From assembly GCF_014646875.1 (NCBI RefSeq), contig NZ_BMOC01000001.1:124001-188000 (forward strand): 64,000 bases of DNA, read 5' to 3'. The stretch's first letter is position 1, and each line of letters begins with the position of its first letter. The notes beneath the pieces are model-generated. The model saw only the letters and a program-made list of their open reading frames with translations. It was not told the DNA's origin and searched no databases. Below are positions 29,755 through 49,571 of this stretch, piece after piece. Origin of the DNA: Halobellus salinus. Its GTDB lineage: Archaea > Halobacteriota > Halobacteria > Halobacteriales > Haloferacaceae. The translations under genes were made by a program, and so were the position numbers.

Positions 29755-29825
29755 GCGCCAGTGGTCCAGTGGTAGGACAGTGGCTTCCCAAGCGCCGCGC
29801 CGCGATTCCAATGTCTGACGGCGCA
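29755..29825 (+). pseudogene. tRNA-Gly(CCC) with degenerate 3' half (integration junction)
   Basis: The first 39 bases are identical to the intact tRNA-Gly(CCC) at 40952-41022. The remaining 32 bases have the same length but agree at only about 18 positions, so the anticodon stem (GTGGC against GCGCC), T-arm and acceptor stem no longer pair fully. The promoter ACTCCGAACGTTTTATA at 29702-29718 is retained and resembles the one before the intact copy. It probably marks the left junction of an element inserted into this tRNA gene. Confidence 0.8.
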
Positions 29826-29886: not shown

Positions 29887-31065
29887 ATGTTCACCTACGA
29901 CGACCAACCCGACGACGAAGACCACGATCCCACCGAAGATTTTGAAGGGCCACCTGTAGCCGGACCCACTCAAGACGAACTGGAACACTTCGCGCCCTTT
30001 CTCGCAGAAGACTACAAGGATTTCAAAGTAGACTTTATCGACTACCTCAACGACGTGGGGAAAGAGCCTGACGCAAACAAAGGATATTCCCGCCAGACGG
30101 TCAAGGGGACGCATTACCGCATCGAGCAGGTGTTCCGCTGGCTGTGGGACGAAGAAAAAGAATACACCAGCGACCTCACTCCAGAGCAAGCGACCGAGTT
30201 AGTCCGATTTGTTCACAACCGGACACCTCACCCTGATTCCGTCGCATACCACTACGTCAAATCAATCCGCCGACTGTTCGATTACTACCGTGACCGGCGA
30301 CGAGAACACATCGAAGAATGGGAACACGATGTTGATCTGACGAATACGAACAGCGCCAAATCCAACCACCAGAAAGATCGGCTCCATCCCACCGAGTTTC
30401 GGGATATATACCAAGCGGCGCTGGAACACTCGTCGGTCAAGAGCTACAACAACAAGACGATGGGGCCGGAAGAGCGAGAACAGCTCAAGATCTTTGTGTC
30501 CCGTCGATTGGGTGTTCCGAAGGACGAGATCGGGCCTGAGGAGTTCAAGAAAGCAAGTTCTTGGAAAATTCCCTCTCTCATTGCCGTTACTTGCGATACC
30601 GGGCTTCGACCCATTGAGGTGAAGCGTGCGAAGGTGGATTGGTTCAATTTGGATCGTCAGAAGATGATTATCCCGAAGGACCAATCCTCGAAGAACAGTG
30701 AACGGTGGCGGTGTGCGCTCCAGAACCGGGCAGTAAGCGCGTTACGAAAATGGCTCGATGAACGCTCCTCGATGGAGAAATACCAAGGCACGGACGCACT
30801 ATGGCTCACGAAGTACGGGGAAGGGTACGACTCCCACTCGCTCAACCCCATCCTGCAAGATCTGATGGAGAAAGCCGAAATCGACCAGCGTGGGCGGGAT
30901 CTCTCGTGGTACTCAATTCGCCACGGAGTTGCTACTGTGTGGGCTGAGGATAAGGGGATCTACAAGGCGAAGAACCAAATGCGGCACAAGTCCATCGAGA
31001 CGACGCTTCGCTACACTCGAAACTCCGGGGATACGCTAACAAAAGAGGTCAACTCGATCTGGTAA
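29887..31065 (+). CDS. Tyrosine recombinase (integrase) of island 1
   Basis: This 392-residue protein has the catalytic residues of XerC/D-type recombinases: Arg in CDTGLRPIEVKR, the SWYSIRHGVAT block (Arg-His), QMRHKSIETTLRY with the second His and the tyrosine nucleophile. The N-terminal 100 residues form the core-binding helices. It lies 61 bases after the damaged tRNA-Gly, as integrases next to their attachment site do, and is closely related to the integrases at 51662 and 58716. Confidence 0.93.
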   Translation: MFTYDDQPDDEDHDPTEDFEGPPVAGPTQDELEHFAPFLAEDYKDFKVDFIDYLNDVGKEPDANKGYSRQTVKGTHYRIEQVFRWLWDEEKEYTSDLTPEQATELVRFVHNRTPHPDSVAYHYVKSIRRLFDYYRDRRREHIEEWEHDVDLTNTNSAKSNHQKDRLHPTEFRDIYQAALEHSSVKSYNNKTMGPEEREQLKIFVSRRLGVPKDEIGPEEFKKASSWKIPSLIAVTCDTGLRPIEVKRAKVDWFNLDRQKMIIPKDQSSKNSERWRCALQNRAVSALRKWLDERSSMEKYQGTDALWLTKYGEGYDSHSLNPILQDLMEKAEIDQRGRDLSWYSIRHGVATVWAEDKGIYKAKNQMRHKSIETTLRYTRNSGDTLTKEVNSIW

Positions 31066-32868: not shown

Positions 32869-32997
32869 TTAGTCTTCACTTACCTCCTCAATTCGACGCT
32901 CAATAGCTTGCTCATAGATACGGTCGGGATCGGGTTCTTCTTCCGGCTCGTTGTCGCCAATATCCCCGGGGTGTGCAGGGTCGCGTTCAAGCGCCAT
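32869..32997 (-). CDS. Small acidic protein coupled to the SWIM gene
   Basis: This 42-residue reading frame (MALERDPAHPGDIGD..., then acidic residues, ending RRIEEVSED) starts at an ATG that overlaps the SWIM-gene stop by one base (TAATG). That overlap and the charged composition support real translation. It has a Pro/Glu-rich middle and a C-terminal helix, suggestive of a small binding partner or antitoxin-like peptide. Function unknown. Confidence 0.55.
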   Translation of the reverse strand: MALERDPAHPGDIGDNEPEEEPDPDRIYEQAIERRIEEVSED

Positions 32998-33512
32998 TAT
33001 TGCTCCTCCGACGATTGGTAGCACGGGAAGCACGGGAGTGAATCACCGTTCGGTCCCGGACACATCTCCGACCCATTCAGACATTCCTCACGTTTCTCCG
33101 CATTGAGGCGGTTGGATTCCCCACCGTCTGCTCGAAGTTTCTCCGACAGCGTCGATGTGTTCGAGTGGTCGGTGTCTACGCTCTCGGTCTGGAACTCTAC
33201 GGACGCTTCGAGAACGACGGGACCGCCGATAGTCCCGAGAGCTACCTTGTGCTTGCAGTCGTATTCCTCGTTGTACTGGTCGGCAGGACACTCGCACTCA
33301 GCCGGCGTAAGCAGCCCCTCACGGTCTTCGACACCAACGAGGTAGCTATGCTCATCTTTCTCCACGCCGTACGATGCGTTGGTCACACGGACGAGGTGCG
33401 GCGCTTCAATAGAGAACTCGAACGCTTCCCACGTTGCCCGCTTCGAGGTTTTGGTTCCGAAGTTCAGTTCTTCGACGATGCTCTTATCAGCCGTAGTGTC
33501 GTTATCTGACAT
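32997..33512 (-). CDS. SWIM zinc-finger protein
   Basis: This 171-residue protein has a SWIM zinc finger: CECPADQYNEEYDCKH (CxC...CxH) near residue 95, after a domain beginning ATWEAFEFSIEAPHLVRV. The C-terminus has a second cysteine set (MCPGPNGDSLPCFPCY). SWIM domains bind DNA or protein. It is divergent from the 75-residue gene at 33681 and coupled to the 42-residue gene behind it. The MSDNDTT start avoids an upstream unconserved segment. Confidence 0.8.
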   Translation of the reverse strand: MSDNDTTADKSIVEELNFGTKTSKRATWEAFEFSIEAPHLVRVTNASYGVEKDEHSYLVGVEDREGLLTPAECECPADQYNEEYDCKHKVALGTIGGPVVLEASVEFQTESVDTDHSNTSTLSEKLRADGGESNRLNAEKREECLNGSEMCPGPNGDSLPCFPCYQSSEEQ

Positions 33513-33680
33513 TGCTTCGTAGCCCACGAAGCACGGTCGGTGTACCAGCACCGGCCATTTCTGCGATGGCAACACCGCGCTTCGTACTCAGTAGTCTATC
33601 GGCCACCCACTTAATAGTTAGCATATTTGCTAACATAAGCAAATGTAAGAACCTTTTCCGCTTGGGCGTAAACGTACTGT

Positions 33681-34112: not shown

Positions 34113-34763
34113 TCACGCCCCTTCATCATTCAGCAATTGCTCTGGATAGAGGTCGGAAACTAAGCCGATAATCTGATATTCAAGTTGTTCAAGCGGAACC
34201 TCGAAGTCGTGGTAGAGGCCAGTGTCCTCTTGCTGCCACGCCTTCGTCCAGAAGTACGTCTGTTGTCGGAGGTGTCGCCCCTCGTCAAAGAGCTGGTCAG
34301 CCCACTTCTCGTACTTCTGCTTCTGGTTCTTGTCGTGGTTGAAGATGATAGCGCTGAGATTACCGATGTGGTAGTAGTGGCCGTCTCCCCATCGGGCAAA
34401 CTTACCAGTACTGCTCCCTCGAAGACCACGTAGATTTGCGCTCAGTCCCTCACCGTCTCGTCCGTACTTGCCAGCCTTCCCGACGTAAAGGGGGATGACA
34501 TTCCCGTCCTCCAGCCAGTACATCAAATAAATCAAGCCGTCATAGCTGTCATCAGAGGTCGAAAAATCGTTGATGACCTTTCGGCCCTCCTCTCGAACGA
34601 GCGATTCCATCTCCTCGCTTCGTTTCAAGATTCGTCTGTCGTCTTTCCCGTAGTTCTTGTACTCGACAGTCAGATCCTTGTCAGTCTCGAAGAGCGGGAT
34701 GGGATTCTCTGTGTCAACGTAGCGGTCAGTCCACTCCTGCCAGATTTCCTCTTTCGTGGTCAT
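34113..34763 (-). CDS. GIY-YIG-like nuclease domain protein, third gene of a coupled operon
   Basis: This 216-residue protein has, at about residues 78-101, YDGLIYLMYW followed by PLYVGKAG, the spacing of the GIY and YIG strands of GIY-YIG nucleases; a conserved-looking arginine (NLRGLR) and histidine (YYHIGN) follow. The N-terminal third is charged and helical. Its ATG overlaps the stop of the DUF6884-like gene as ATGA. Nuclease activity is inferred from the motif; I know no characterised homologue. Confidence 0.55.
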   Translation of the reverse strand: MTTKEEIWQEWTDRYVDTENPIPLFETDKDLTVEYKNYGKDDRRILKRSEEMESLVREEGRKVINDFSTSDDSYDGLIYLMYWLEDGNVIPLYVGKAGKYGRDGEGLSANLRGLRGSSTGKFARWGDGHYYHIGNLSAIIFNHDKNQKQKYEKWADQLFDEGRHLRQQTYFWTKAWQQEDTGLYHDFEVPLEQLEYQIIGLVSDLYPEQLLNDEGA

Positions 34764-35188
34764 ACTCGCTCCGTGTACCACGCCTTCTTTTCACCGATGT
34801 ATAGGCCCTCTGTGGGAATCTCGATGGTGACACCACTGTCTTCGATGAGAGGTAAGAGTTCCCCGTAGTAGTCCTTGCCAGCGTGTAGCACAAGCGTAGT
34901 CTCCTCGGTGAGCAGTCGTTCGTTGTCTAACTGCTCGGCAACCTTCTCGGACCACTCCCGCTTCTTTGCCACGCTTAAGCCAGTGAGCGTCTCGTTGTAT
35001 GGTTCGATAGGCTCACCGTCTGGGTCAAGGAGGCCGTGCTTGGCTGAAAGAATCCACCAGTCGTCGTGATGTTGCTCTGCATAGGAGCGCATCTTCTCGA
35101 AGTAGTCGGGGGTGTAGAGATTCTTCGGCGTGGCTGGCTCGTCTCGCTTGGTCTTGACGCAACTGACGAGGCCGATTTCTCGGGTCAT
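34760..35188 (-). CDS. DUF6884-like protein, middle gene of the operon
   Basis: This 142-residue protein has EIGLVSCVKTKRDEP at the N-terminus and DDWWILSAKHGLLDPD followed by EPYNETLTG, the hallmark blocks of DUF6884 proteins found widely in phage and mobile-element settings. Biochemical function is not known to me. The ATG giving MTREIG forms an ATGA overlap with the nuclease-like gene before it; a start 15 bases upstream would be a longer overlap. Confidence 0.75.
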   Translation of the reverse strand: MTREIGLVSCVKTKRDEPATPKNLYTPDYFEKMRSYAEQHHDDWWILSAKHGLLDPDGEPIEPYNETLTGLSVAKKREWSEKVAEQLDNERLLTEETTLVLHAGKDYYGELLPLIEDSGVTIEIPTEGLYIGEKKAWYTERV

Positions 35189-35787
35189 TCGATTATTTCC
35201 CATGTTATGACGGCTCCCTGCTGATGAACTGGATGACGCAATCCATCGAAGTGAGCCACGTTCCTCGTCTCAACCTCAAAGTCATACCAGTAGTCTACAT
35301 CGAGAGCGAACTTTTCTGCGACAGCTTCGGGACTCATCCGTTCGTAGGACTCATCCACCGGCTCGTAGTAGAGGCCGAGCAGTCCACCAGTTTCCTCAAA
35401 CCTTGCTTCGTAGAGTTTCTGCGAGTCTGTGAGGAGAGTAGAGGTTGTCTCTTCTGGGAATGGGCTGAACACTTTCGCAAAACTATTCGGGTCGATGTTG
35501 CCGTTGTCGTAGCGGAAGCGGAGGAGTTTCGCCTCAACCGGAATCGCTGCTTCCTCGCTCTCGATGAAGAGGTCAACACGTTGTCCTCCATCAAGATATG
35601 GTGCTTCTGTCTCGATGGAGTAGCTGGTGCCGCCTTCGACGGCGTCTCGGAGCATCTCGACTTGCTTGTTCTCCTCGAAGGGACCGATACCCGCCTGCCA
35701 TCGGGTATGATCGGCTTTGCTATCGACAGTGGGAACTGCTGAGGCTAAGTCGTCTGCCAGTTGCTCCAGTATTTTGGATGGATTCAT
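35185..35787 (-). CDS. PD-(D/E)XK nuclease-like protein, first gene of the operon
   Basis: This 200-residue protein contains GGQRVDLFIESEEAAIPVEAK at about residues 67-87: an aspartate after a strand and then E-x-K on the next strand, the core of PD-(D/E)XK nucleases. A leading glutamate-rich helix and a long C-terminal part surround it. It heads the three-gene ATGA-coupled operon. The combination suggests nucleic-acid defence or modification, as inference only. Confidence 0.6.
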   Translation of the reverse strand: MNPSKILEQLADDLASAVPTVDSKADHTRWQAGIGPFEENKQVEMLRDAVEGGTSYSIETEAPYLDGGQRVDLFIESEEAAIPVEAKLLRFRYDNGNIDPNSFAKVFSPFPEETTSTLLTDSQKLYEARFEETGGLLGLYYEPVDESYERMSPEAVAEKFALDVDYWYDFEVETRNVAHFDGLRHPVHQQGAVITWEIIE

Positions 35788-36317: not shown

Positions 36318-37562
36318 TCACACGCTATTATTGATCTCTTTGACGACCTGATCATTCAACCGTGGACCATCGGTGAGGTCTGTCTGGACGAGCATATCAA
36401 CAATATCGCCACCAGCAAACAGCCGTATTGGATAGGTCGAGAGGCTCTCTTGCTGGGCAGCGTCCGTGTAATGGGACATAGTAAAGAATAGGCCAATTTC
36501 ACCATCACCAACTCGGGAAGCAAGACGACTCAGTTCCCGACCACCAACCGATCCTTTTTTGTTTTTGACCTGTGCTTTGAATTTGAGCTTGGTTTTATTT
36601 CCGCCAAGTGTCACGTCCGGGAGCAAGTTTGTTTGACCAATAATGTCCACACCTTTGTCTCCGCTTGAGGGCGTTCGACGAACCTGAGTCATATTGTCCA
36701 TACTTTCGAGCAAACGCTCGATCAGCATCTCCAGCTTTTGACCACGCTCTTTGGAGGTTCCGTCAAGTCGGGTTCGTATATCCTCGTGGAGCGGCTCTAA
36801 GCGGGTATCTGGCTGTTGGTTAGCCTTCGAGCGGATCTGCTCGTTGTAGATTGAATATCGACGGACTGTTCCTGTATCCACCCAGTGATCCCACGCGTCA
36901 GGTCCACCAACATCATATCCAGTTCGGCTCTTGCGATGAATCCATTCAAGATCGACTGTGTCAGTGTCAAGAATTTCGAGGTCAATCCGGTAGTTGACAA
37001 CCGTTTCACCCTCATCTCTATGGCGGGTGATACTCAGATCATCAATGACACAGCATCCTTTGAACGTTACCCAACCAACACGTTCTTTCTGAAACAACAA
37101 TACCGGGGGCGCTTCGTCCCGATTATTCTGAGCGTAAGTGGAGCAATACTGCTCTTTCACAAGTCGGTTGCCACGACGGCTGAGTGGGTCCGGTCCATCA
37201 CCAGCTTTCGAGTCACCCCAGTAATAGGCAATGCCGTCTTCGAGATTGATTATATCCTCCCAAGGATCGTGTGAAGTAGAGCTTGTGCTTGAGGAGTACA
37301 GTACAATAAGCTCACAAGCATCAGTTTGTGGATTGCGAAGCGCCTCAATACCACGATAGCTAACTCCACCATCGAGTGGTGCGTTTAACCACCCACGATA
37401 TTCATTGGTGGAGAGATCTGTAGAGTTCCGGTATTCTTCCCCGACGACGTACTGGTCGCCGTACTGTCCCATAGGATTTCCAGAGTGTCGCGGCCAGATA
37501 ATTATAGCGCCGTAAGTGTGGGAGTCTCTGGTAAGAGCGCGCTTGCTAACTGAGTTTGCCAC
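36318..37562 (-). CDS. AspBHI-like modification-dependent restriction endonuclease
   Basis: This 414-residue protein has an N-terminal domain with RGIEALRNPQTDACELIVLY and IAYYWGDSKAGDGPDPLSRRGN, resembling the modified-cytosine-binding domain of AspBHI-type enzymes, and a C-terminal Mrr-like PD-(D/E)XK domain (GDKGVDIIGQ, then KFKAQVKNKKG and GLFFTMSHYT). Such enzymes cut DNA bearing modified cytosine. The GTG start lies 17 bases inside the HNH gene. No methylase is nearby, consistent with a type IV/IIM system. Confidence 0.72.
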   Translation of the reverse strand: MANSVSKRALTRDSHTYGAIIIWPRHSGNPMGQYGDQYVVGEEYRNSTDLSTNEYRGWLNAPLDGGVSYRGIEALRNPQTDACELIVLYSSSTSSTSHDPWEDIINLEDGIAYYWGDSKAGDGPDPLSRRGNRLVKEQYCSTYAQNNRDEAPPVLLFQKERVGWVTFKGCCVIDDLSITRHRDEGETVVNYRIDLEILDTDTVDLEWIHRKSRTGYDVGGPDAWDHWVDTGTVRRYSIYNEQIRSKANQQPDTRLEPLHEDIRTRLDGTSKERGQKLEMLIERLLESMDNMTQVRRTPSSGDKGVDIIGQTNLLPDVTLGGNKTKLKFKAQVKNKKGSVGGRELSRLASRVGDGEIGLFFTMSHYTDAAQQESLSTYPIRLFAGGDIVDMLVQTDLTDGPRLNDQVVKEINNSV

Positions 37563-38476: not shown

Positions 38477-40327
38477 CTATTCCGAGAACTCAACGTGTCC
38501 GTACTCTCCTGCTTCTTCGAGACGAACATTTGAGAAGTGATACGCACCTCCTTGTCCTGCTGTTCGACTCGCAAGATAGCCGTGGTCAACAAGTGTCTTC
38601 AGATGTTCCCGAGCGGATCTTTTCGAAACATCCACTTGGTCTGCTACGTCGCTAACCTTCCACTCGCGAGTCTCCCAATCATCGAGACTCTGGATAGTTC
38701 CGATCACTTGGATCATCCCGTTCTTCTGGGTGATCCACGAATCAATATCCACGAGGCGCTTCTCTGGTTCTACCCACTTCGGAAGTGCTGATGTGTGGAC
38801 ATACACCGTAGCGCCCTTTTCCCCATTACATTCCTCACGACCGAAGCGCATCACCGCCTGTAGCACCTCGTTGTGAATCTTCGCTTCCATCACGCGGTTC
38901 CCGAAGAATCCGTAATCCGTATCCTCACCTTCAGTTCCCTCTTTTCGTTTGGCGGAGTAACCAGCCAACGCACTCCACTTCTCGATAACACCATCACCGG
39001 GGTGTGGGTTCCCGAGGATAACACCAGACCGTAGCGTTCCGAAGCTGTTGATCCCCTTCAGACCGCCGTAGTTCTCCATTTTCGATACCAGCGACTTAAT
39101 GCCGTGATTTTTGTACTGTTTGAGGGCCTCCTTCGAGGAAATCACCCCAGGCTTTTGCCCCTCAATGTCGCCCACCTTTTCGACAAATGGAATATCGACA
39201 GTTGGAGCGACACCTTCTCCGCTTTGATATGCGTTCCAATTCTCGGTAGTCTGTACGATGCTGAGTTCGAGAACTTCTTCCAAGTACTTCTGACGCTGAT
39301 CGTGGGCAAAGAGAGCCAGGTGGTTGACCTCTGTTCCCAGTACGAGTTCCCAGAGTTCGGTGACTGGTGTTCCATCAAGAGCTACGACGCTCTCAGCGTT
39401 CTCGAAGTCAGGTGGTAGCAGGAACGACCATTCGTGTTCGGTGTTTCGAGCGGCCACCTTACCATCACCGAGATCAGCGTGTTGCCACCGGTTTTCGAGA
39501 CGTTCCTTCTCCAGATTCGCCATTGTCATTAGGGGAGCGAGAGCGTGGGCTGCGGAGGCGGGACTCTGGAGTACGTGAGTGGAATCGTAGGGCTGCCAGA
39601 GGTCGTCCTTCCACGCCTCAACCTCCATTGGAAAATCCGATCCCCGCGTAAGTAGATCGTCATAGTCGTGAAATGGAAGTTGGTCTTCTTCTCGAAGGTA
39701 AGCCGTTACAGCTGGTGCAACTTTACCTGTGTACTCCTGCACGAACGCATCACCGGGAAATTCGTCAATGGCTACGTATCGATCATCAGTCCAGTCGTCT
39801 TGGTATGCGTGCAGGTAGTGACCAAGAAGAACATCGTAATCCTCCACCTCAATGCTGAGTTTCTGGATGAACGGACACTGACTGTCGTGCTGACAAGGGA
39901 GATCCTCTCCGTACAATCTGCTCGCCTCTTCGTGTATCTTCTCTCCCTTGAGGCCCTGCCGATACCTCGCAAGGAGTTTCTCGGTGAGTTCGTCTGCTGG
40001 TCGTCCTTTCTTATCGAGTGATACGCTCTTACAGTCTCGATGGAACGATGGGAGTCGGGTTACTGAAAGATCGAGGTCACCTTGTTTACACCACCCTTCA
40101 TACTCGTCCAAGAGGTCGTGATGTGGGCCGAAGACTGTGAGCTGATTTCCTGTCTCTGCCGCCCACGAAAGAACCCCGTAGCTCTTTCCCGAAGCAGGAA
40201 GCGCCTCGATGAGTGTGATCTCCGGGGAGGAGAATCCACGGCGAATTATTTCGGTCACACGGCCACGAATCGATTCTTTGTTTGGTTCAGATGATACTAC
40301 GGTCGAAGTAGATGGGTCTACGGACAT
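38477..40327 (-). CDS. Helicase-like P-loop NTPase with C-terminal winged helix
   Basis: This 616-residue protein has Walker A ALPASGKSYG near residue 43 and a DE-type Walker B (YVAIDEFPGD), plus the paired cysteines CQHDSQCPF between them. The last 90 residues form a winged-helix domain (KVSDVADQVDVSKRSAREHL). It resembles a replication or transfer helicase found on haloarchaeal integrated elements. It is the last gene of island 1. Its cofactor or partner is unknown. Confidence 0.7.
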   Translation of the reverse strand: MSVDPSTSTVVSSEPNKESIRGRVTEIIRRGFSSPEITLIEALPASGKSYGVLSWAAETGNQLTVFGPHHDLLDEYEGWCKQGDLDLSVTRLPSFHRDCKSVSLDKKGRPADELTEKLLARYRQGLKGEKIHEEASRLYGEDLPCQHDSQCPFIQKLSIEVEDYDVLLGHYLHAYQDDWTDDRYVAIDEFPGDAFVQEYTGKVAPAVTAYLREEDQLPFHDYDDLLTRGSDFPMEVEAWKDDLWQPYDSTHVLQSPASAAHALAPLMTMANLEKERLENRWQHADLGDGKVAARNTEHEWSFLLPPDFENAESVVALDGTPVTELWELVLGTEVNHLALFAHDQRQKYLEEVLELSIVQTTENWNAYQSGEGVAPTVDIPFVEKVGDIEGQKPGVISSKEALKQYKNHGIKSLVSKMENYGGLKGINSFGTLRSGVILGNPHPGDGVIEKWSALAGYSAKRKEGTEGEDTDYGFFGNRVMEAKIHNEVLQAVMRFGREECNGEKGATVYVHTSALPKWVEPEKRLVDIDSWITQKNGMIQVIGTIQSLDDWETREWKVSDVADQVDVSKRSAREHLKTLVDHGYLASRTAGQGGAYHFSNVRLEEAGEYGHVEFSE

Positions 40328-40951: not shown

Positions 40952-41022
40952 GCGCCAGTGGTCCAGTGGTAGGACAGTGGCTTCCCAAGCCACTAGCCCG
41001 GGTTCAATTCCCGGCTGGCGCA
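40952..41022 (+). tRNA. tRNA-Gly(CCC)
   Basis: A complete 71-base cloverleaf: acceptor GCGCCAG/CTGGCGC with discriminator A, D-arm GTCCAGTGGTAGGAC, anticodon arm GTGGC-TTCCCAA-GCCAC with anticodon CCC, and T-arm CCGGG-TTCAATT-CCCGG. No intron. This appears to be the only intact copy of the three in the window. It is the attachment site of the islands on either side. Confidence 0.96.
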
Positions 41023-41180
41023 TCCCTATCCTTTCGCTGTCCTGCGGTTTTGGCCTGTGACGAGACAACGATGACGCCACAACGCCAGGCCACACGAATC
41101 AGGACGAACCGCCGACCCCGACGTTGTCGGGCGATTAGTGCTGTTGGTGCGCCACCCCGATTCGCACGAACGAAGAAAGT
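41023..41180. repeat. Duplicated integrase-upstream region, copy without integrase
   Basis: These bases after the intact tRNA match 51456-51612 at close to nine positions in ten. In the second copy the region leads into the integrase at 51662, while here homology ends near 41180 and no integrase follows. It is thus the left end of an older element whose integrase was lost. The rest of the gap to 41413 contains no recognised gene. Confidence 0.8.
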
Positions 41181-41413
41181 ACAGGCCAGCCGAACACAGC
41201 CTGCCTTGTTGAGCGCAAGACAGCGACGGGGGAGGGTCGATTGTTTGTAGTCTCTGGCTGTCAGAGACGCGATCTTGCAGTCAGAAGATGCAGTAGCGGT
41301 CACTCACGGCGGTTGTCGAAGGGTCAAGACTATGCTATCTTGCTTCGTTGTGTCAGTGACGGCGGCGATGCCTCTCCCGGATACGTCCGGAGAAAGGGAG
41401 CAGGCGGCGAGGC

Positions 41414-42205
41414 CTAACTCGCCGCCTGCGTCAGGTTATGGACGATGCACTTCCGAGTCAGCTCCCGGAACTGGCCGTGCCAGGTTCGGGAGCGGAGCTT
41501 CTCGCCGTCGTCTTCCTTCAACTGGGAGAACCCCGTCTCACTCATCCAGCGTTGGTTGTAATCCTCGTTCATTCGGGCGTTGTGGGCCTTCTGCAACAGT
41601 GTTTGTTCCCTGTGCTTGATCAGTGGTCGCATTGAGTTGGAGCGACACTCCTCACGAAGCTCGCCCCACGAGCAGTTCGCGTCAGCAGACAATACACGCA
41701 GGTCTTCCGCCGGAACGCGGAAGACCTGCATCCCGATGTGGCCGTCCCACGCCTTCTGTGTCGTGAAATGAACGTCTTTGGTCGCTAGGGAGTTCACGTC
41801 GATCAAGATTGTTGTCTTCATCGACTGCAACGAGTAGTTCGCACGGTCACGGTAGTGATAGCTGGTCTGATCACGCTGGAAGCCACTTGCATCGATTGCG
41901 GCTTCACCACTCCAGCCCGCCTGCTCCGCCGACGCGCGGAGCAGGCGGCGGAGTTCACGCATCCGATACTCGTCTTCCCACCGGCAGACCGAACTGTAGT
42001 GTGGTGCCTCGTCAAGATCAAACACGGCGAGGATACCAGGCATCTCGTCGAGGTAATCCTCAGTTTCACGAAGACTCTTCTCCAACTCAACGCGGAACAA
42101 AATCAACGCGATCTGTGTCCACTTGGCGTACCCGTCCGCGCCGTCCGGCGCGGCGGGTACGTCAGGGTCATCTACGTGCTGTTTGGCAAGATCTCGACAC
42201 AGCAT
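41414..42205 (-). CDS. IS5-family transposase (N-terminus lacks a start codon)
   Basis: This 263-residue protein has IS5-type blocks: DASGFQRDQTS (first catalytic Asp), TTILIDVNSL, and the C-terminal MSETGFSQLKEDDG with the catalytic Glu region, then WHGQFRELTRKCIVHNL. The frame upstream of the ATG continues with family-like residues (SVKLTRNWTPSG, DIGSLRRLA) up to a TAG without any ATG, GTG or TTG. Either translation starts at the internal ATG or the gene is crippled. Confidence 0.8.
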   Translation of the reverse strand: MLCRDLAKQHVDDPDVPAAPDGADGYAKWTQIALILFRVELEKSLRETEDYLDEMPGILAVFDLDEAPHYSSVCRWEDEYRMRELRRLLRASAEQAGWSGEAAIDASGFQRDQTSYHYRDRANYSLQSMKTTILIDVNSLATKDVHFTTQKAWDGHIGMQVFRVPAEDLRVLSADANCSWGELREECRSNSMRPLIKHREQTLLQKAHNARMNEDYNQRWMSETGFSQLKEDDGEKLRSRTWHGQFRELTRKCIVHNLTQAAS

Positions 42206-42331
42206 CGCTAGCCGTCTGAGCGATCCAATATCGCCAGACGGCGTCCAATTCCTGGTTAGCTTGACGGAATCTTCCTGTGAGATCGTCTGAAACTACAGTC
42301 AGCCAGCGGCAAAACAAGGCAAGTCTATCAG

Positions 42332-42595
42332 GTGTATATCGCAATGTACCGTGCTCGTAACGAGATTGGGGCTCAACTATCGCCCCCGAAAGCTCGTCCC
42401 AAACTATTCCGTACTCTCATTATGGATTCCCCAGTCGCGGCGGAGTATAAGTTTCCCGAGGTCCTCAGTGAGGCGGCTGTACGCGGAATACGAGATGCCG
42501 AGATGGCCCTTCCGTACCGATCGAAAGCTGAAATCTGCTACCGATTCCTGGTTCCCGAGTCCCACCTCGATATCAGCGATGCAGAGTCGGTGTGA
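42332..42595 (+). CDS. Hypothetical protein
   Basis: An 87-residue reading frame lies between a transposase and a toxin-antitoxin pair. I see no recognisable motif. Composition is balanced and an internal ATG (MDSPVAAEYKF) offers a shorter start of 57 residues. It may be a gene fragment; confidence that it is translated is low. Confidence 0.3.
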   Translation: MYIAMYRARNEIGAQLSPPKARPKLFRTLIMDSPVAAEYKFPEVLSEAAVRGIRDAEMALPYRSKAEICYRFLVPESHLDISDAESV

Positions 42596-42646
42596 CTGCG
42601 TCGCAGCCGAAGTGCTATAGTCAAACTGACTAACATAAACTGGTTC

Positions 42647-43129
42647 CTATGGTGGATTTTGGCCTGCGTTCAACGGTTCGTATGAGTTGGTATGGTACGC
42701 AACTCGCCAGAGTTTGAGCACAGCACGTATGACGAGGTCCGGGGGAGCCTGTGTGATACAGGATGCTTCGACCTCGTCAGGTTCCGAACTCGCATCCGGT
42801 GGCGGATGATAGTGTTCGAGTCTCGGGACGTGAATGTAGTCTCCCCCGTGTGGGTGCTTTCCCCACCGGAAGTCCACTCCTTGGTCGTCCGTATAGTGGA
42901 ATTTATACTCGCCCTGTGTCGTCCACTGGACATCGATTCGAGCTGTCTTGGCCTCGCAAAGCCCGTCTTCAAGCGTAAGTTCGAGAACGGACGGATTGAG
43001 GTAATCGTCGAGTTCAGCCGTCGCCAGCGGCTCCATTGTCTCAACGATATCGCGGAGTCTGAGCAGCGCCGCTCGATCTGTCGCTCCACGAAGCGTGTGG
43101 GCTTCCGATCGGTCAGGCGACCCGGTCAT
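42647..43129 (-). CDS. TumE-like (DUF6516-type) toxin candidate
   Basis: This 160-residue protein has a middle domain with GEYKFHYTDDQGVDFRWG, HPHGGDYIHVPRLEHYHPP, close in pattern to the TumE family (strand, then W/Y-N/H and a His-rich turn), whose members are toxins of TumE-TumA modules. The gene follows the HTH gene by only 2 bases. Assignment as a toxin is inferred from the motif and the gene pair; the HTH partner would be the antitoxin. Confidence 0.6.
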   Translation of the reverse strand: MTGSPDRSEAHTLRGATDRAALLRLRDIVETMEPLATAELDDYLNPSVLELTLEDGLCEAKTARIDVQWTTQGEYKFHYTDDQGVDFRWGKHPHGGDYIHVPRLEHYHPPPDASSEPDEVEASCITQAPPDLVIRAVLKLWRVAYHTNSYEPLNAGQNPP

Positions 43130-43131
43130 TT

Positions 43132-43722
43132 TCAGACCGGAACCGTGTCGTCAGCAGAGCGATGATCGTCATTGACAAACTGTTCTGCATTACCGATTGA
43201 GAGAGCCGCGTTCGCAAACGCGAGGTTTCGACGTAGCGTCTTCCATTCACGAATCGTTTCCGGATCAATCGTTTGCTGGGTGGATTTAGATGCTGCAAGC
43301 GCCTGATTCGCCTGCTCGACGGCCAACTCTTCCGGAGAGTCGACGCCAAACTCGGACTGGTATTCGGAGAGTTGCTCACGCATCTCATGAATTCGCGTGA
43401 CGAGTTCGTCAGTCGAGACGTGCTCAAGAATGTCGGCCGCCTGCTCAACGACAAGCGATTCGGACGACCGGCGGTACTGTGTCCCGCCGTGTTCTCCGGG
43501 GACTGTCTCGACGAACCCCTCATCAACGAGTGCTTTCAGGTGCTTTCGAGCCGTTTTCGGGGCCGTCCGCGCATCCTCAGCGACAGCATCTGTCGAGACA
43601 GGCTCATATGTGTGCGCGATAACCCGTCGAATCCGCTCGTACGGCGTTGTTTCGGCTTCCCACTGGGCCCCGACTGCCTCATTGATGTCCGCAAACTCCT
43701 CTGGCTGTTCTTGATCACTCAT
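43132..43722 (-). CDS. Winged-helix regulator (DUF7342-like), putative antitoxin
   Basis: This 196-residue protein has an N-terminal ArsR-like winged helix (DAVAEDARTAPKTARKHLKALVDEGFVETV) and a C-terminal coiled-coil region (LVTRIHEMREQLSEYQSEFGV). It belongs to a large haloarchaeal family usually paired with a small partner gene as seen here. It is first in the operon and probably represses it. The start MSDQEQ was chosen; an ATG four codons upstream is possible. Confidence 0.75.
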   Translation of the reverse strand: MSDQEQPEEFADINEAVGAQWEAETTPYERIRRVIAHTYEPVSTDAVAEDARTAPKTARKHLKALVDEGFVETVPGEHGGTQYRRSSESLVVEQAADILEHVSTDELVTRIHEMREQLSEYQSEFGVDSPEELAVEQANQALAASKSTQQTIDPETIREWKTLRRNLAFANAALSIGNAEQFVNDDHRSADDTVPV

Positions 43723-43935
43723 ACCTGTATCCAAAGTTTAGAGGAATATAATAATTTGGTACAGTCCTATGTTACGTTGTATAAAAAAGAGGGTACGGCG
43801 ACTCTTGGTAACTGAGTTCTTTTTGAACTGACCGACTTAGGACTAGCTGTTGAGTTCTGAGCATCTGTACGTACCCTAGATAGCCTCGCAGCACGCCCGA
43901 CCGGGAATTATGCGTGTCTGCACACGGTGCTCCGT

Positions 43936-45326
43936 ATGGGACGTTCTACACTTAGTCAGTCACTCACGCCGGCCCTGGTTGCGTGGCGCGAGCTGGTGTC
44001 TGATGGGCCGACAGGGGCCGGGGTTGATTTCTCCGATACAAATCGGACACGAGTGTGTCAGTGTCGGTGTGGCGCGTTTCTCGAAGACCCGACTCCGGAG
44101 ACGTTTCGAGCGTTGTGGTCTGAAGACGCGTTGGCCAGTTACTGGGCTCCGAGTGCTGCTGTTCTGCTTGGTGCTGACTCCGCCATCGATTCGCTACCGC
44201 TGTCTATTCGGAGATGACGACTGCCGATGAGTTCGATTCAACGTGGGTTGACCGCCTCGCTGGCTCCGGGACTGCGTGGGGCGTGTACGAGTTGTACGCC
44301 CGACTGCAAGGTGGAGTTGATCCGATCCCGACGCTTGAGGCGAAATCGGCTCTGAAATCACTCGGCTATACCGATGTCGACACGCCGGCCACAGTCACGA
44401 CTGCGGTCAGGGATTTCACTGACGAGTACGGGTCAGTCGTCGGACACGCATCAGCAGACACCGCGTGCGAACTCCTTATGTATGCTGAAATCGATGAATT
44501 CTTTAGCCTCATACAAACTACCAACCAGGATACGATCACTGTGCAGGTGACGGGACCGTACGCGGCGTTGTTCCGCCCGCTTATCGGGCACCGCGTCCGC
44601 AACGACACTGCGGAACCGGTCGAATGGCAGGGTGTGGATGCTCTCATCGACGCACACGTCGAGGCCCGTGATTCGGGAGCGTACGATGATCTGGAAACCT
44701 CGCACTGGGGTGGGACTTACATCGAATCGTGGAAGTGGCAGTTCGCGGAGTACTTCGCGGATGTCATCCGGGCAGAGTTCGAGTTGACAGCGTTGACCGC
44801 GGCGGATATCCCCCGATTCTTCGAAGCGATCGAAGACCCAGACGCGGAGTTCGATGCCGTCTCGAACGTCCCAGCAAAAATGATGGGTGGGCAATGCCAT
44901 TGATTGACGTGGCAGGACATCGTCGCCTATTGCCACGACAACCCCGACGAGGCCGCGGCGGTCCTCAGCGACCTGTACAACGAAGAGATCTCCGTTGTCG
45001 ACCGTCTTAACGAGTTCTATGAATTCTTCCGCCACCTCACGACACGAGAGGAAAACGACCGGCCGCCCGGCTCACTACTCCGTGCTGCGACAGCTCTGTC
45101 ACTGTACGCGTTCCCAGACCGGCACATCACGTTCCAATACCGGCGGATGAATAACTTCTTCAGCGAGTACTCAACGCTTGACAGCCTCGACACGGGATTC
45201 AACGCTCGGCAGTACCACGAAGTTGCCGTCGCGTGCCGAGACCTGCTCTCGAAAATCAAAGACCGGACTGGAGACGCAACAATGATCGACGTACAGACGC
45301 TCATCTACATCGCAGACGACACGTGA
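43936..45326 (+). pseudogene. McrB-like restriction ATPase, N-terminal part, frameshifted and truncated
   Basis: Three adjacent segments form one ancestral protein: SQSLTPALVAWRELVSDGPT with CQCRCGAFLEDPTPETF; then EFDSTWVDRLAGSGTAWGVYE through SHWGGTYIESWKWQFAEYF to KMMGGQCH; then LTWQDIVAYCHDNPDEAA to the end. A one-base frameshift lies near 44195, and an in-frame TGA at 44901-44903 interrupts the last part. The AAA+ GTPase domain is missing after TLIYIADDT. This is the N-terminal region of a haloarchaeal McrB-type protein. Confidence 0.75.
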
Positions 45327-45471
45327 CCAACCCGGTGACTCCACCAAAACTCTACTTTTTTGGAATGTGATGCACCGTGGGGCAGCATCAAACCGAGCGA
45401 TACAACACCTCTGGTCAGTAAGATCAGGACATAGACCTGCTTGAGTGTGGTAGTCTTTGGTGAGATGCAGC

Positions 45472-45816
45472 TCACTCTGCGTTGATCTGTTCAGTTGAAT
45501 CTCCGCCTGTTGGGGGCTGTAACTCCACTGTATGATTCGTATGCCGAGCGTGCACCTTCGCCCACCGGCGAGCAGGCCGCTCTTCAAGATACTGATCGCC
45601 ATCCGGACACTGCCGACAATCTACTGTCCACGGCGTCACGTCATCGGGAAAATGACCCGTATGCCGTTCGTGATCAAGTGCGAACTGTTCGACAGCCTGG
45701 TTACCAGCGTACAGTTCCTCAAGCTCGAAGTCGAGGTCCCACTCACGGCCACACCGTGTACACGTGACAGTGGGAACGCCGCTCTCCAGCGTGTCTGCAG
45801 ATGGGTCATCGGTCAT
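45472..45816 (-). CDS. Cysteine/histidine-rich small protein
   Basis: This 114-residue protein has CTRCGREWDLDFELEELYAG, FALDHERHTGHFPDD, VDCRQCPDG and a second HxxH (VHARHTNHT): two CxxC pairs and paired HxxH-like elements, consistent with two zinc sites. I know similar proteins in haloarchaeal islands but not a function. The ATG before TDDPSAD is chosen; the frame continues upstream with unconvincing residues. Confidence 0.65.
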   Translation of the reverse strand: MTDDPSADTLESGVPTVTCTRCGREWDLDFELEELYAGNQAVEQFALDHERHTGHFPDDVTPWTVDCRQCPDGDQYLEERPARRWAKVHARHTNHTVELQPPTGGDSTEQINAE

Positions 45817-46147
45817 ACATCCGAAATACCACCCCAGCCCCTTCTGCGCTGTCCTTGCGACGGTCGCCGCAGCATCTCGTAGCTGCTTTGACCGAACGGA
45901 TCGCTCGTGGAACACCTCAAAAGTACTCGTGAATCGAATGATTCGGTGTACGTGAGGGCCGTCCAAACACAAGCAGCGAGTACGACTCTAAATCGACTTC
46001 GCCAGTGACTGCTGTGATCACGTCTTGAGAGATCACTTCCAGCGATACTGTCGTCATCGTCATCGAACTGAGGTGAATGGCCGTCGCAAATCTGTCGGAT
46101 TATGCAGTTACGATTTCCTGCTCTGTTGGATAGATGCTGAAGCACGG

Positions 46148-46537
46148 TTAGAGCGGTTCACAGAGCGGTTCTATGTTGGTGATGGCGAACATCAGGACAA
46201 TTTCACGGAACTGCCGATACCAGCCGAGCGCTCGCACGGCGTAGCGCAGCAGCGCCCGCCACACCCACATTTTCAGCCGGTCGAACGACTTGTAGATCGT
46301 GCTGTAGTCCGGCAAATCGTCCCGATCTAAGCCGAGTGCATCACGAATCTCGGCCATATACTTCAACCGATTCGGCGTTTCACGGTAGCTGTGGCCTTCT
46401 TCGAGCCGAAAACAGTGCAGAACAACGTGCACCCAGCGGGCGAACCCGCCGTTGGCGGGCTCGCCCGCGTGCTTCCCCAACGCTTGTTTAGCTAGGTCAC
46501 GACACCGCTCAACGAAGTCGAGGAGATCGATCTCCAT
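46148..46537 (-). pseudogene. IS5-type transposase with large internal deletion
   Basis: The first about 107 residues are a normal N-terminus (VERCRDLAKQALGKHAGEP, HSYRETPNRL, LPDYSTIYKSFDRL), then YAVRALGWYRQFREIV joins straight to the last 20 residues (LMFAITNIEP). About 190 residues, including the DDE catalytic core, are missing without loss of frame. It is a deletion derivative, not an active gene. Confidence 0.85.
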
Positions 46538-46685
46538 AGGACAGAATCGAATTCCTCGGCTTCATCCTTCTAAACCCGTGATATTGGCTGGTTAGACCGC
46601 TATTCAACAGAGCACAATTATCTATTTCCTCTTCCTTACTGTCGGGCTGTTTACTCCGCAACCACTAGATGACCGTGATGGAGAC

Positions 46686-47186
46686 GTGTGGGACACAAGA
46701 CCTGCTGCACTTCAGCCAATTTCTCTACTCCCACCGGTTTATTTTCGGAATGTCAGATTCGTTGGGAATAAGTCGATTTTCCCCGGGATCCTCATTGTGG
46801 CGCTCATGATAGCTATTTTTTCGAACTCTGATGTAGTTTCGGCACTACCTCTCTCGGTTGGACTTGCGATTGTCGGTATTGCTCTGTTTCAATTGATGCG
46901 AGTATGGCGATACTTCATTGCAGACCAATCATACCAACAGAAGTCACCGCAGGACGCGGTACAGTTTGCGTTTGCTCCAGTTAGTGAGGTGCTATTCATC
47001 ATCTTCTACGCATTTATTCCAGTCACGTTTGTGATCGTGGGGGGTGTAATGGTCACAGATATTGACTTTCCCCCACGGACTGTGTTGCTGTTGGTATATC
47101 TCGTGCCAATAGGAGCGATTCGAGCGTGGATGAGGAGTTTAGATCCTCAGACAGACGATCTTGAATTAGCATTCTCCCCGGCTTGA
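46686..47186 (+). CDS. Four-TM membrane protein, unknown
   Basis: This 166-residue protein has four hydrophobic segments (about residues 32-50, 53-72, 102-122 and 130-150), with RYFIADQSYQQKSPQDAVQF in the middle loop. No family is recognised. It stands alone between the deleted transposase and the histidine kinase. The N-terminal 20 residues may not be translated; a start within them is possible. Confidence 0.5.
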   Translation: MWDTRPAALQPISLLPPVYFRNVRFVGNKSIFPGILIVALMIAIFSNSDVVSALPLSVGLAIVGIALFQLMRVWRYFIADQSYQQKSPQDAVQFAFAPVSEVLFIIFYAFIPVTFVIVGGVMVTDIDFPPRTVLLLVYLVPIGAIRAWMRSLDPQTDDLELAFSPA

Positions 47187-47282
47187 AATGCGAGGGTTCC
47201 AAAGCGTTGGAATATAATTACTGACACCTACTGAAAGCTGAAAACGATTAACGCCGATCGATGAGTACGGGGTATCAAGCGG

Positions 47283-48980
47283 TCAGTTTCCGGTCTCGAT
47301 GTCGGTGATCTCAAAGCGTGCGCCGCCGTCGTCACTGTCAGAGACCGAGATGGACCACCCGTGAGCGTCGACGACTTCTTCAACAATAGAGAGCCCGAAT
47401 CCGGTGCCGTCCGGGTTGGTCGTATAGCCGTGGTCGAAGATTTCGTCACAGTCGTCCGCGGGAACGCCGTCGCCGTTGTCTTCGATAAAGAAGCTGATAA
47501 ATGACTTGTCATCTTTGTTCGCTGTCTCGCTGGGGATGACGCCGGTGCGGATGGTGAGTGGCGGCTCGTTATGTTCTTTGGCGTTACGAAAGAGATTTTC
47601 AAAAATATGCATCAGACGGTCTCGATCCGCTTCGACCGTCACACTCTCGGGAACCTGCATATCAAGCTCCGTCCCATTTTGTTGGATCTTGTCCCAACTG
47701 TCCGCGGCAACACTGGCAAGTGATACTGGCTCTGTCTCATCGATGCTCTGTCCGGCACGGGACAACTCAAGCAGATCCGTCATAATATTCTCCATCCGCA
47801 CTGCTGACCGCTCGATTGCATCTATATCATCCTGATCGTTCGTCGTTCCGTCTAAAAGTCGTACACGACCGATGATTACCCCGAGCGGATTCCGAAGGTC
47901 GTGAGAGACCACTGAAGCAAATCGATTGAGCTGTTCGTTCTGCAGAGCAAGCTCACTCTTGCGCTCCTCACGTGCTGTTACTTCACGCATAAGCAGTTGT
48001 GTACCAAGTTGGTCAGCCACCGGGCCACTGATTGGTGAGATGGTCAGATCAAAATGGCGTGGAGTTCCATCCGATGAGAGCGTGAGTTCGTCTTCGCCGT
48101 GTTGAATTGCGGTCGCAACGGCTGGGGCAATCTCCGCTATCTTGTCGCCGATGTCGCTGCCAGAGATATCGAGTAATGTTTCAGCTGCTGGGTTGTAATC
48201 CACGAGCCTTGCTGTTGCATCAATAGCGATGTATGGATCAGCCAAGTCTTCAATGGCTTCGTCTCGCGCCAGGGGAGTCACATCAGCAAGTTGCAACCGT
48301 TGAGCTGCGAATACGAATGACAGCGCTGGGAATATGATGCCAAATGCTGTGTGGTCATACGTCGGGACAAGCCCAAGTCTGAGTCTTGAGAGAACAAATG
48401 GGGTCAAACCCAAGAGAAAACCCGTGACAATTAGTATCAGTGCCGAACTGGGTCTGTGTCGGGATTTGAGGTACAGCTCGATGAAGTAATAGTATGACAC
48501 AAGAAAGGCAGAAAGAATGATCAGAACTGCCGCGAACCACATTATTTCGTATGAAATCATAATATGTGCAAACGGTTCCGTGTAGAAAGTGACTGACTGC
48601 CAGTATAAATTGTGGAACTGGGCCGTCAACACGAAAGGAGAGACGATAATTGCCGCAATGGTCACCGCTCTCACAGTGTTATTTTGCCGCCAATTCCGTC
48701 CAGTAAATTTAGCGGTAAAGGCGACCAAGGGAATTGCAGAAAACATCGGTATTGTCCCCCAGATTGACCTGAGTGTGAGGAGTAGAGAACCAGTAGGAGC
48801 AACAACGAGGAAAACCGAAACAATCGACCATATAGTATTGCTGAGTGCGTAGACACCGTAGAGACGACGGGCGCGCATATCGGTTTGGAACACGATCCAG
48901 TAGCCTACGGTAAGAGACACCAGTGCTGTGAGCACATGACCCAGAATATACGCTAATTGGGTAGTCCCACCCGTGGACAT
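47283..48980 (-). CDS. Seven-TM sensor histidine kinase with PAS domain (island copy)
   Basis: This 565-residue protein has seven membrane segments in residues 1-225, a PAS domain (DPYIAIDATARLVDYNPAAETLL), a coiled region, the SVVSHDLRNPLGVI phospho-acceptor box with His360, and a full ATPase domain: NLFRNAKEHN (N box), EDNGDGVP (G1) and GTGFGLSIVEEVVDAHGW (G2). Unlike the chromosomal kinase at 13203 its catalytic boxes are intact. No response regulator is nearby, so signalling may be through a shared partner. Confidence 0.9.
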   Translation of the reverse strand: MSTGGTTQLAYILGHVLTALVSLTVGYWIVFQTDMRARRLYGVYALSNTIWSIVSVFLVVAPTGSLLLTLRSIWGTIPMFSAIPLVAFTAKFTGRNWRQNNTVRAVTIAAIIVSPFVLTAQFHNLYWQSVTFYTEPFAHIMISYEIMWFAAVLIILSAFLVSYYYFIELYLKSRHRPSSALILIVTGFLLGLTPFVLSRLRLGLVPTYDHTAFGIIFPALSFVFAAQRLQLADVTPLARDEAIEDLADPYIAIDATARLVDYNPAAETLLDISGSDIGDKIAEIAPAVATAIQHGEDELTLSSDGTPRHFDLTISPISGPVADQLGTQLLMREVTAREERKSELALQNEQLNRFASVVSHDLRNPLGVIIGRVRLLDGTTNDQDDIDAIERSAVRMENIMTDLLELSRAGQSIDETEPVSLASVAADSWDKIQQNGTELDMQVPESVTVEADRDRLMHIFENLFRNAKEHNEPPLTIRTGVIPSETANKDDKSFISFFIEDNGDGVPADDCDEIFDHGYTTNPDGTGFGLSIVEEVVDAHGWSISVSDSDDGGARFEITDIETGN

Positions 48981-49189
48981 AACAAATTCTACTGTAATAA
49001 CCACATATATAATCTGGCAACAGGATGGACGAAAGTGGCTGGAGCTATCGCATACTGAGTGCTGACTTCGCTCTCTGTATTCAGCCGACTGGTTCTGACG
49101 GAGTCTCAATAGAACATCACGCGACACAGGGTGTCATAGAATCGGTCACAGTCTCATCGCGCTTCATACCTAGTGTCCGGGCCAGGCGG

Positions 49190-49465
49190 TCAAACGTATG
49201 GGAAGAGGACTATCAGTAGAAGCGCTATCACACCAACAGCAAGCATCGCTGCGATTAGCAGGCTCGTGAGAGAACTCATCTGTTCGTCGGGGATACCTTC
49301 CGGTTCAAACACCCCTGTGAGTATGCTACCGCCAAAGCACGCTAACATAACAGCCGGAATCCCCATACCCAGCGAGATAACCAGCCCTGACTCGGTAAGG
49401 GCAGTCTGCCCCATCCAGAGACTCATCAGAAGCATTGACAAACCAAAGCCTACGCGACGATTCAT
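49190..49465 (-). CDS. Small three-TM membrane protein
   Basis: This 91-residue protein has three hydrophobic segments (about residues 5-22, 28-48 and 70-89) and a short polar loop (EPEGIPDEQMSS). No family is recognised. It lies downstream of nothing in particular; the neighbouring kinase is on the same strand but separated by 209 bases. The start at MNRRVG was chosen for its basic N-terminus. Confidence 0.5.
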   Translation of the reverse strand: MNRRVGFGLSMLLMSLWMGQTALTESGLVISLGMGIPAVMLACFGGSILTGVFEPEGIPDEQMSSLTSLLIAAMLAVGVIALLLIVLFPYV

Positions 49466-49571
49466 ATCTGAGAGATTGGCTAACAACGGTCAAAATAGCG
49501 ATTATAATTGAAACGACTATTTGCATAAAATCCTCGTCGGGACACTCCATTCGGAAGGTGAGACGAACTAC

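What the first reader, a model, noticed from the sequence alone, without database searches (positions are those of the whole stretch)
34113..35787. Three-gene ATGA-coupled operon of a nuclease-like, a DUF6884-like and a GIY-YIG-like protein on a mobile island
All three genes overlap by exactly four bases (stop/start ATGA), a sign of a single functional unit. Two ends of the operon look like nucleases of different folds and the middle gene is a DUF6884-type protein of unknown function. It lies in an integrative element next to a restriction cassette. I know no described system with this trio, so it is the best candidate here for an undescribed defence or nucleic-acid processing system.
Basis: partly seen in the sequence, partly recalled or inferred. 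Interest (0 to 1): 0.8.

Follow-up and report, generated by a model that had tools for sequence, protein, structure and literature searches.

The report
DUF6884 plus nuclease operon, candidate defence
A three-gene operon on a haloarchaeal mobile element pairs a DUF6884 protein, whose viral relatives sit among genes that put 7-deazaguanine bases into DNA, with two probable nucleases; the same pairing recurs across archaea and bacteria, so it is probably a defence that cuts foreign DNA carrying modified bases.

Summary
Three genes (p1 35787-35185, p2 35188-34760, p3 34763-34113, minus strand) overlap by ATGA, lie in an 11.2-kb tRNA-Gly integrative element beside an AspBHI-like restriction gene, and are under purifying selection. 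The full trio recurs in Haloarcula japonica. p2 is DUF6884. p3 is a divergent GIY-YIG protein, shown through a chain of profile matches. p1 carries an invariant D-x12-ExK motif, but its fold is unproven.

An unbiased scan with DUF6884 alone found a GIY-YIG-type gene within 300 nt at 43 of 80 loci across archaea and bacteria, four as single-gene fusions. Partners swap between GIY-YIG types A, AA, B and C, PD-(D/E)xK-like proteins and the glycosylase AGOG. PADLOC already lists DUF6884 + type C as the unvalidated candidate PDC-M57. The trio is therefore a haloarchaeal variant of that kind, not an unknown system.

New clue: viral DUF6884 genes adjoin DpdA, QueC/D/E or a queuosine-precursor transporter at five loci, including halovirus HRTV-29. 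Best reading: DUF6884 recognises or processes a modified (7-deaza) guanine in foreign DNA and the nucleases cut, as in type IV restriction. The linkage is shown; the activity is inferred. Main rival: base-damage repair.

The parts
35185..35787 (-). p1, 200 aa, PD-(D/E)xK-like nuclease (D72, E85, K87)
   Evidence: No Pfam or NCBIfam hit; D72/E85/K87 invariant in 23 of 23 family members; dN/dS about 0.1; AF2 model uninformative, pLDDT 40
34760..35188 (-). p2, 142 aa, DUF6884 (PDC-M57A)
   Evidence: PF21818 E 1e-41; PADLOC PDC-M57A E 1.5e-33; CxxxK (C10, K14) and LSA (L47-A49) invariant in 27 aligned relatives
34113..34763 (-). p3, 216 aa, divergent GIY-YIG family protein (type A, single domain)
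   Evidence: Profile chain p3 family ~ N-half of tandem homologues (P 1.6e-18) ~ type B (P 1.1e-5), and type B hits PF01541 at 1.4e-6; Y79, Y93, G95, E195, N212 invariant; AF2 pLDDT 83.7 with beta-beta-alpha...beta-alpha order
35185..35188 (-). ATGA stop/start overlap p1-p2
   Evidence: Sequence; conserved in G274 and G251
34760..34763 (-). ATGA stop/start overlap p2-p3
   Evidence: Sequence; conserved in G274 and G034, and kept in G251 where the third gene is type B
36318..37562 (-). AspBHI-like modification-dependent restriction endonuclease, associated upstream gene
   Evidence: RE_AspBHI_N 9.9e-38 and Mrr_cat 4e-13; PADLOC mREase_II 2.9e-36; homologue directly upstream of a p1 homologue in L247
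37546..38013 (-). HNH protein overlapping the AspBHI-like gene
   Evidence: PF01844 E 1.2e-13
32997..33575 (-). SWIM zinc-finger protein downstream; its homologue also flanks the Haloarcula japonica trio
   Evidence: PF04434 E 1.6e-4; homologue in L033/L092 E 5e-61
29887..31065 (+). tyrosine integrase of the element
   Evidence: PF00589 E 5e-14
29755..29793 (.). attL: 39-bp copy of the 5' half of tRNA-Gly(CCC)
   Evidence: Exact repeat
40952..40990 (.). attR: the same 39 bp inside the intact tRNA-Gly gene

Best explanation
The operon is a mobile, modification-directed DNA-cutting defence module. The DUF6884 protein (p2) binds DNA and flips out or processes a modified guanine; a 7-deazaguanine such as preQ0 or its derivatives is the best candidate. 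The co-translated nucleases (GIY-YIG p3, with PD-(D/E)xK-like p1) then cleave that DNA. The host encodes only the two tRNA-type TGT proteins and no recognisable DpdA, so its own DNA is presumably unmodified and spared, as in type IV restriction. Shown: the gene families, conserved coupling, fusions, partner swapping, purifying selection, mobile context, and linkage of viral DUF6884 to 7-deazaguanine genes. Inferred: the substrate, base recognition, cleavage and defence.
For: (1) A scan with DUF6884 alone: 43 of 80 loci have a GIY-YIG-type gene within 300 nt, 41 on the same strand, 4 fused into one ORF; only one further GIY-YIG gene lies elsewhere in those loci. (2) Partners are exchanged but nearly all are DNA-cutting or base-excising: GIY-YIG A/AA/B/C, p1, X421 (PD-(D/E)xK-like by eye), a weak BglII-like hit, AGOG. 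In the same-genus relative G251, p1 and p2 are kept at 84% and 80% identity while p3 is replaced by type B at the same ATGA junction. (3) DUF6884 + type C is PADLOC candidate PDC-M57. (4) Viral DUF6884 genes adjoin 7-deazaguanine genes: HRTV-29 gp32 overlaps gp33 DpdA; phiFN37 has it between a TGT and a queuosine-precursor transporter; L181 DUF6884-DpdA; L172 QueC-DUF6884-QueD-QueE by sequence; L189 DUF6884 near QueC. HRTV-29 and L181 fall inside the haloarchaeal DUF6884 clade. (5) Bacterial fusions L135 and L155 sit in QueC / DUF6884-GIY / SIR2 operons. (6) DpdC, needed for dADG formation in the Dpd system, is annotated as DUF6884 (PMC11888242), and a DUF6884-GIY fusion weakly matches DpdC (1.9e-4). 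(7) Halovirus HVTV-1 carries dPreQ1 at about 30% of its Gs (PMC6884629), so a substrate exists in this niche. (8) The AspBHI-like neighbour is itself modification-dependent.
Against: No activity has been measured. Viral DUF6884 could make a modification rather than read one, so reuse as a sensor is an inference. In p3 the canonical catalytic Arg of GIY-YIG enzymes is not clearly placed, Foldseek found no PDB match, and p1 has no usable model. 37 of 80 DUF6884 loci have no GIY-YIG partner within 300 nt. AGOG partners suit base repair as well. Similarity of DUF6884 to the ArcS domain DUF5591 was not significant (P 0.039). Most viral DUF6884 loci show no recognised 7-deazaguanine neighbour.
Confidence: 0.45

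Rival explanations
1. A DNA-repair module: DUF6884 binds damaged or mispaired bases (abasic, oxidised or ribonucleotide) and the GIY-YIG or PD-(D/E)xK partner incises, in the manner of UvrC or an AP endonuclease, with AGOG as an alternative partner.
For: AGOG (8-oxoguanine glycosylase family) adjoins or overlaps DUF6884 at 4 loci; B. subtilis YfjM, a DUF6884 protein, was found among interactors of DNA lesions (PMC11701544); GIY-YIG is the UvrC incision fold; a p3-like gene pair lies near recA on a Deinococcus plasmid.
Against: Sporadic distribution (p3 in 40 of 293 and p1 in 27 of 293 genomes of the order), integrative-element and plasmid location, restriction neighbours, frequent partner swapping, and viral DpdA/Que linkage all fit a defence role better than housekeeping repair.
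Confidence: 0.25
2. An abortive system whose target is tRNA or other RNA carrying 7-deazaguanines (archaeosine, queuosine); the nucleases cut RNA on infection.
For: All these archaea carry ArcS and tgtA and presumably modify tRNA; QueC and SIR2-like neighbours in the bacterial fusions; some defence nucleases attack tRNA (general knowledge).
Against: Viral DUF6884 pairs with DpdA, whose homologues act on DNA; the Pfam authors describe a positively charged DNA-binding cleft; the PD-(D/E)xK, AspBHI and AGOG neighbours are DNA enzymes.
Confidence: 0.08
3. Independent cargo genes that happen to be co-transcribed, with no joint function.
For: Many DUF6884 genes stand alone (37 of 80); p1 also occurs without p2.
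Against: Adjacency in distant phyla, four fusions, conserved ATGA junctions after partner replacement, and virtually no GIY-YIG genes elsewhere in the same loci.
Confidence: 0.08
4. A self-modifying restriction-modification system in which DUF6884 finishes a 7-deazaguanine mark on host DNA and the nucleases cut unmarked DNA (Dpd-like).
For: DpdC is a DUF6884 protein in Dpd islands.
Against: No DpdA or DpdB in the operon; the host has only tgtA and ArcS as TGT-domain proteins, although a divergent DpdA would be missed because the viral ones do not hit Pfam TGT.
Confidence: 0.05

Closest known systems
PDC-M57 (PADLOC phage-defence candidate: M57A DUF6884 + M57B GIY-YIG-type protein)
   Same: Same core protein (p2 hits M57A at 1.5e-33) directly followed by a GIY-YIG-type gene
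   Different: p3 is another GIY-YIG family (no M57B match) and a PD-(D/E)xK-like gene p1 precedes it; PDC-M57 is itself unvalidated
Dpd system (DpdA-DpdK), in particular DpdC
   Same: DpdC is annotated as DUF6884; the superfamily acts on 7-deazaguanine in DNA
   Different: No DpdA or DpdB, no helicases; the nucleases are GIY-YIG and PD-(D/E)xK-like
Modification-dependent (type IV-like) restriction enzymes such as AspBHI and McrBC
   Same: Proposed logic: cut only modified foreign DNA; an AspBHI-like gene is the neighbour
   Different: The proposed reader is DUF6884 rather than SRA/PUA-type or AspBHI-N; the substrate would be modified guanine rather than modified cytosine
YaaA (DUF328) and YfjM
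   Same: Same superfamily fold according to Pfam (PMC11701544)
   Different: Stand-alone stress or repair-linked proteins, not in a nuclease operon
Brig1 and Brig3 anti-phage DNA glycosylases
   Same: A small protein that targets modified phage bases for defence
   Different: Uracil-DNA-glycosylase fold, unrelated to DUF6884

Membership tests
DUF6884 (PF21818) | Profile match over the curated cut-off with CxxxK and LSA motifs | tested here: met
   142.6 bits vs cut-off 30; C10, K14 and L47-S48-A49 invariant in 27 sequences
PDC-M57 | M57A (DUF6884) gene | tested here: met
   E 1.5e-33
PDC-M57 | Adjacent M57B gene | tested here: not met
   p3 has no PADLOC hit, whereas type C matches M57B at 3e-76; p3 fills the same position
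GIY-YIG superfamily (p3) | Homology to GIY-YIG domains | tested here: met
   Indirect, through the tandem homologues and type B to PF01541; NCBI names most of its tandem plasmid homologues 'GIY-YIG nuclease family protein'
GIY-YIG superfamily (p3) | Two Tyr, Arg, Glu and Asn active-site residues | tested here: inconclusive
   Y79, Y93, E195 and N212 invariant; canonical helix Arg not clearly placed
GIY-YIG superfamily (p3) | Fold match to a solved GIY-YIG structure | tested here: inconclusive
   Model pLDDT 83.7 with fitting element order, but no Foldseek match at E<=0.001
PD-(D/E)xK nucleases (p1) | D...(D/E)xK catalytic motif | tested here: met
   D72, E85, K87 invariant in 23 of 23
PD-(D/E)xK nucleases (p1) | Fold or profile homology | tested here: inconclusive
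   No Pfam hit; AF2 pLDDT 40
Dpd system | DpdA transglycosylase in the cluster or genome | tested here: not met
   Only tgtA and ArcS in G000; divergent DpdA not excluded
Type IV (modification-dependent) restriction | Cleaves modified DNA and spares unmodified DNA | not testable with these tools
   Needs biochemistry
Anti-viral defence system | Lowers virus infection | not testable with these tools
   Only guilt by association: mobile element, restriction neighbours, PADLOC candidate

The most novel reading that the evidence does not exclude
DUF6884-nuclease modules are a widespread, partner-swapping class of modification-dependent restriction systems that read 7-deazaguanine (or other modified guanine) in viral DNA. 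This would be the host answer to viral DpdA/preQ0 DNA modification, built from the same DUF6884 fold that the viruses use.
Probability: 0.35. Interest if true: 0.85.

Novelty: new variant of a known kind. Interest (0 to 1): 0.66.

Why it matters
Viruses of bacteria and haloarchaea replace up to about a third of their guanines with 7-deazaguanines and so escape ordinary restriction. In the papers searched here no restriction system aimed at those bases was found. If DUF6884-nuclease modules do this, they explain a large family of unknown function, give meaning to a listed but uncharacterised defence candidate, and supply enzymes for detecting 7-deazaguanine in DNA. The hypothesis is directly testable with halovirus HVTV-1 and a laboratory haloarchaeon.

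Tried and rejected
Viral contigs for p1, p3 and type C: no relatives found. PDB sequence profiles for all three families: nothing significant. Foldseek of the p3 model against PDB: no match. AF2 of p1: failed with only four rows. DUF6884 vs the ArcS domain DUF5591: collinear in part but not significant (P 0.039; an unrelated pair, AGOG-DUF5591, scored P 0.014), so the CxxxK/PCSxxK resemblance is only a lead. Brig1/Brig3-type glycosylase: rejected because those are uracil-DNA-glycosylase proteins. 'Trio always together': rejected; p1 and p3 are optional and p2 is the constant part.

Full report
OBSERVATION. Taking the internal ATGs as starts, the genes run 35787-35185 (p1, 200 aa), 35188-34760 (p2, 142 aa) and 34763-34113 (p3, 216 aa), and both junctions read ATGA. 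The same ATGA junctions are present in relatives at 77-84% protein identity (G274, G034, G251), and dN/dS is about 0.05-0.15 for each gene. The unit is therefore maintained. ATGA overlaps alone would be ordinary in an archaeal operon; the conservation is what counts.

SURROUNDINGS. The trio lies in an 11.2-kb integrative element: tyrosine integrase at 29887-31065, a 39-bp exact direct repeat of the 5' half of tRNA-Gly(CCC) at 29755-29793 and 40952-40990, and a GC drop from about 70% to 41-54%. Upstream on the same strand are an AspBHI-like modification-dependent endonuclease (36318-37562) and an overlapping HNH gene. A p1 homologue follows an AspBHI-like gene by a few bases in another haloarchaeon (L247). 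The SWIM gene at 32997-33575 travels with the trio in Haloarcula japonica.

WHAT THE PROTEINS ARE. p2 is DUF6884 (1e-41) and PADLOC PDC-M57A; the CxxxK and LSA residues are invariant in 27 relatives. Pfam's authors place DUF6884 near YaaA, with a DNA-binding cleft and a modelled flipped base (PMC11701544). p3 has no family hit of its own, but its family is also found fused behind a second domain (tandem 'AA' proteins). That N-half matches the p3 family at P 1.6e-18 and matches type B proteins at P 1.1e-5, and type B hits Pfam GIY-YIG at 1.4e-6. NCBI calls most of the tandem plasmid homologues 'GIY-YIG nuclease family protein'. The p3 model is confident (pLDDT 83.7) and has the GIY-YIG order of strands and helices, but Foldseek found no PDB match, and the canonical catalytic Arg is not clearly placed. 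p1 has an invariant D72, E85, K87 (23 of 23 sequences), the PD-(D/E)xK signature, but no profile hit and no usable model.

CONSERVED NEIGHBOURHOOD. The full trio occurs in Haloarcula japonica (G274/L092), p2-p3 in G034, p1-p2-type B in G251 and G252, and p2-tandem A in G208 and G291. To avoid bias I scanned 84,980 species genomes with a DUF6884 alignment alone. Of 80 loci, 43 have a GIY-YIG-type gene (A, B or C) within 300 nt, 41 on the same strand and almost always directly downstream; four are single-ORF fusions (L135, L140, L155, L157). Only one GIY-YIG hit lies elsewhere in those loci. The pairs span haloarchaea, a Thermoplasmata bin, Chloroflexota, Planctomycetota, Pseudomonadota, Actinomycetota, Acidobacteriota, Calditrichota and Armatimonadota. 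Other partners are X421 (PD-(D/E)xK-like by eye, eight loci), AGOG (four loci), p1, and a weak BglII-like hit. On the DUF6884 tree the partner labels need 31 changes against 54.9 in shuffles: partners are inherited but often exchanged. In G251, the same genus as the window, p1 and p2 are kept and p3 is replaced by type B at the same ATGA junction, a natural exchange that suggests A and B do the same job.

LINK TO 7-DEAZAGUANINE. In halovirus HRTV-29, DUF6884 (gp32, 41% identical to p2, annotated YaaA) overlaps the start of DpdA (gp33). In Fusobacterium phage phiFN37 it lies between a queuine tRNA-ribosyltransferase gene and a queuosine-precursor transporter. Among 21 IMG/VR loci, L181 has DUF6884-DpdA, L172 has QueC-DUF6884-QueD-QueE with overlapping ends (QueD and QueE read from sequence), and L189 has DUF6884 close to QueC. 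Pfam confirms DUF6884 in the two annotated phages. Two bacterial fusions stand in a QueC / DUF6884-GIY / SIR2-like operon with a probable nucleoside deoxyribosyltransferase. DpdC of Dpd islands, required for dADG formation, is annotated as DUF6884 (PMC11888242). HVTV-1 carries dPreQ1 at about 30% of its Gs (PMC6884629). The archaeal-virus survey noted DpdA and YaaA in HRTV-29 separately, in the passages read, without linking them (PMC8651126).

MECHANISM. Shown: families, coupling, fusions, partner exchange, selection, mobility, viral linkage. Inferred: DUF6884 recognises or chemically engages a modified guanine in DNA, most likely a 7-deazaguanine, and the co-translated nucleases cut. The host has only tgtA and ArcS as TGT-domain proteins, so its DNA is probably unmodified and spared; a divergent DpdA would escape that test. 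AGOG, a glycosylase for a damaged guanine, as an alternative partner fits both this model and the repair rival.

COMPARISON AND NOVELTY. The nearest listed kind is PDC-M57 in PADLOC-DB 2.0.0: M57A is DUF6884, and M57B is the type C protein. No paper in the held library names PDC-M57, and the archaeal defence survey treats PDCs as unvalidated (PMC12988326). The window's trio fails the M57B criterion but has a GIY-YIG protein in the same place, plus p1. I file it as a new variant of a known candidate kind. The most interesting part is the 7-deazaguanine connection, which gives that candidate a testable target.

Noticed in passing
40979-51470: A second integrative element appears to sit in tandem behind the first: a 59-bp exact repeat of the tRNA-Gly 3' part plus flank at 40979-41037 and 51412-51470.
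   Followed up: partly
L172:6309-8453: A viral contig carries QueC-DUF6884-QueD-QueE as overlapping genes, so DUF6884 is embedded in a preQ0 pathway operon.
   Followed up: yes
L155:6319-10462 and L135:6338-10372: QueC, a DUF6884-GIY fusion, a SIR2-like protein and a probable nucleoside deoxyribosyltransferase form a conserved operon in a planctomycete and a gammaproteobacterial bin; possibly its own defence system.
   Followed up: partly
L292:4504-5621: In Deinococcus sp. QL22 the two GIY-YIG halves of the tandem type A protein are separate genes overlapping by four bases, near recA.
   Followed up: no
L099 and L121: Records labelled Rhizobium and Syntrophomonadaceae hold haloarchaea-like DUF6884 loci within the haloarchaeal clade; probably contaminant or misbinned contigs.
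   Followed up: no
L105-L121 (Halorubrum loci): X421, a 410-430 aa protein without a Pfam hit, stands divergently beside DUF6884 in Halorubrum; in L110 queD-queE-queC-like genes lie 1.5-3 kb away.
   Followed up: partly
L241, L242, L244: Distant p1 homologues lie at a conserved chromosomal place next to an RlmE-like gene, so p1 also has a non-mobile relative in haloarchaea.
   Followed up: no
38477-40327: 616-aa protein with a possible P-loop and a C-terminal winged-helix hit on the same element; a homologue lies near a p1 and type B pair in L243.
   Followed up: no
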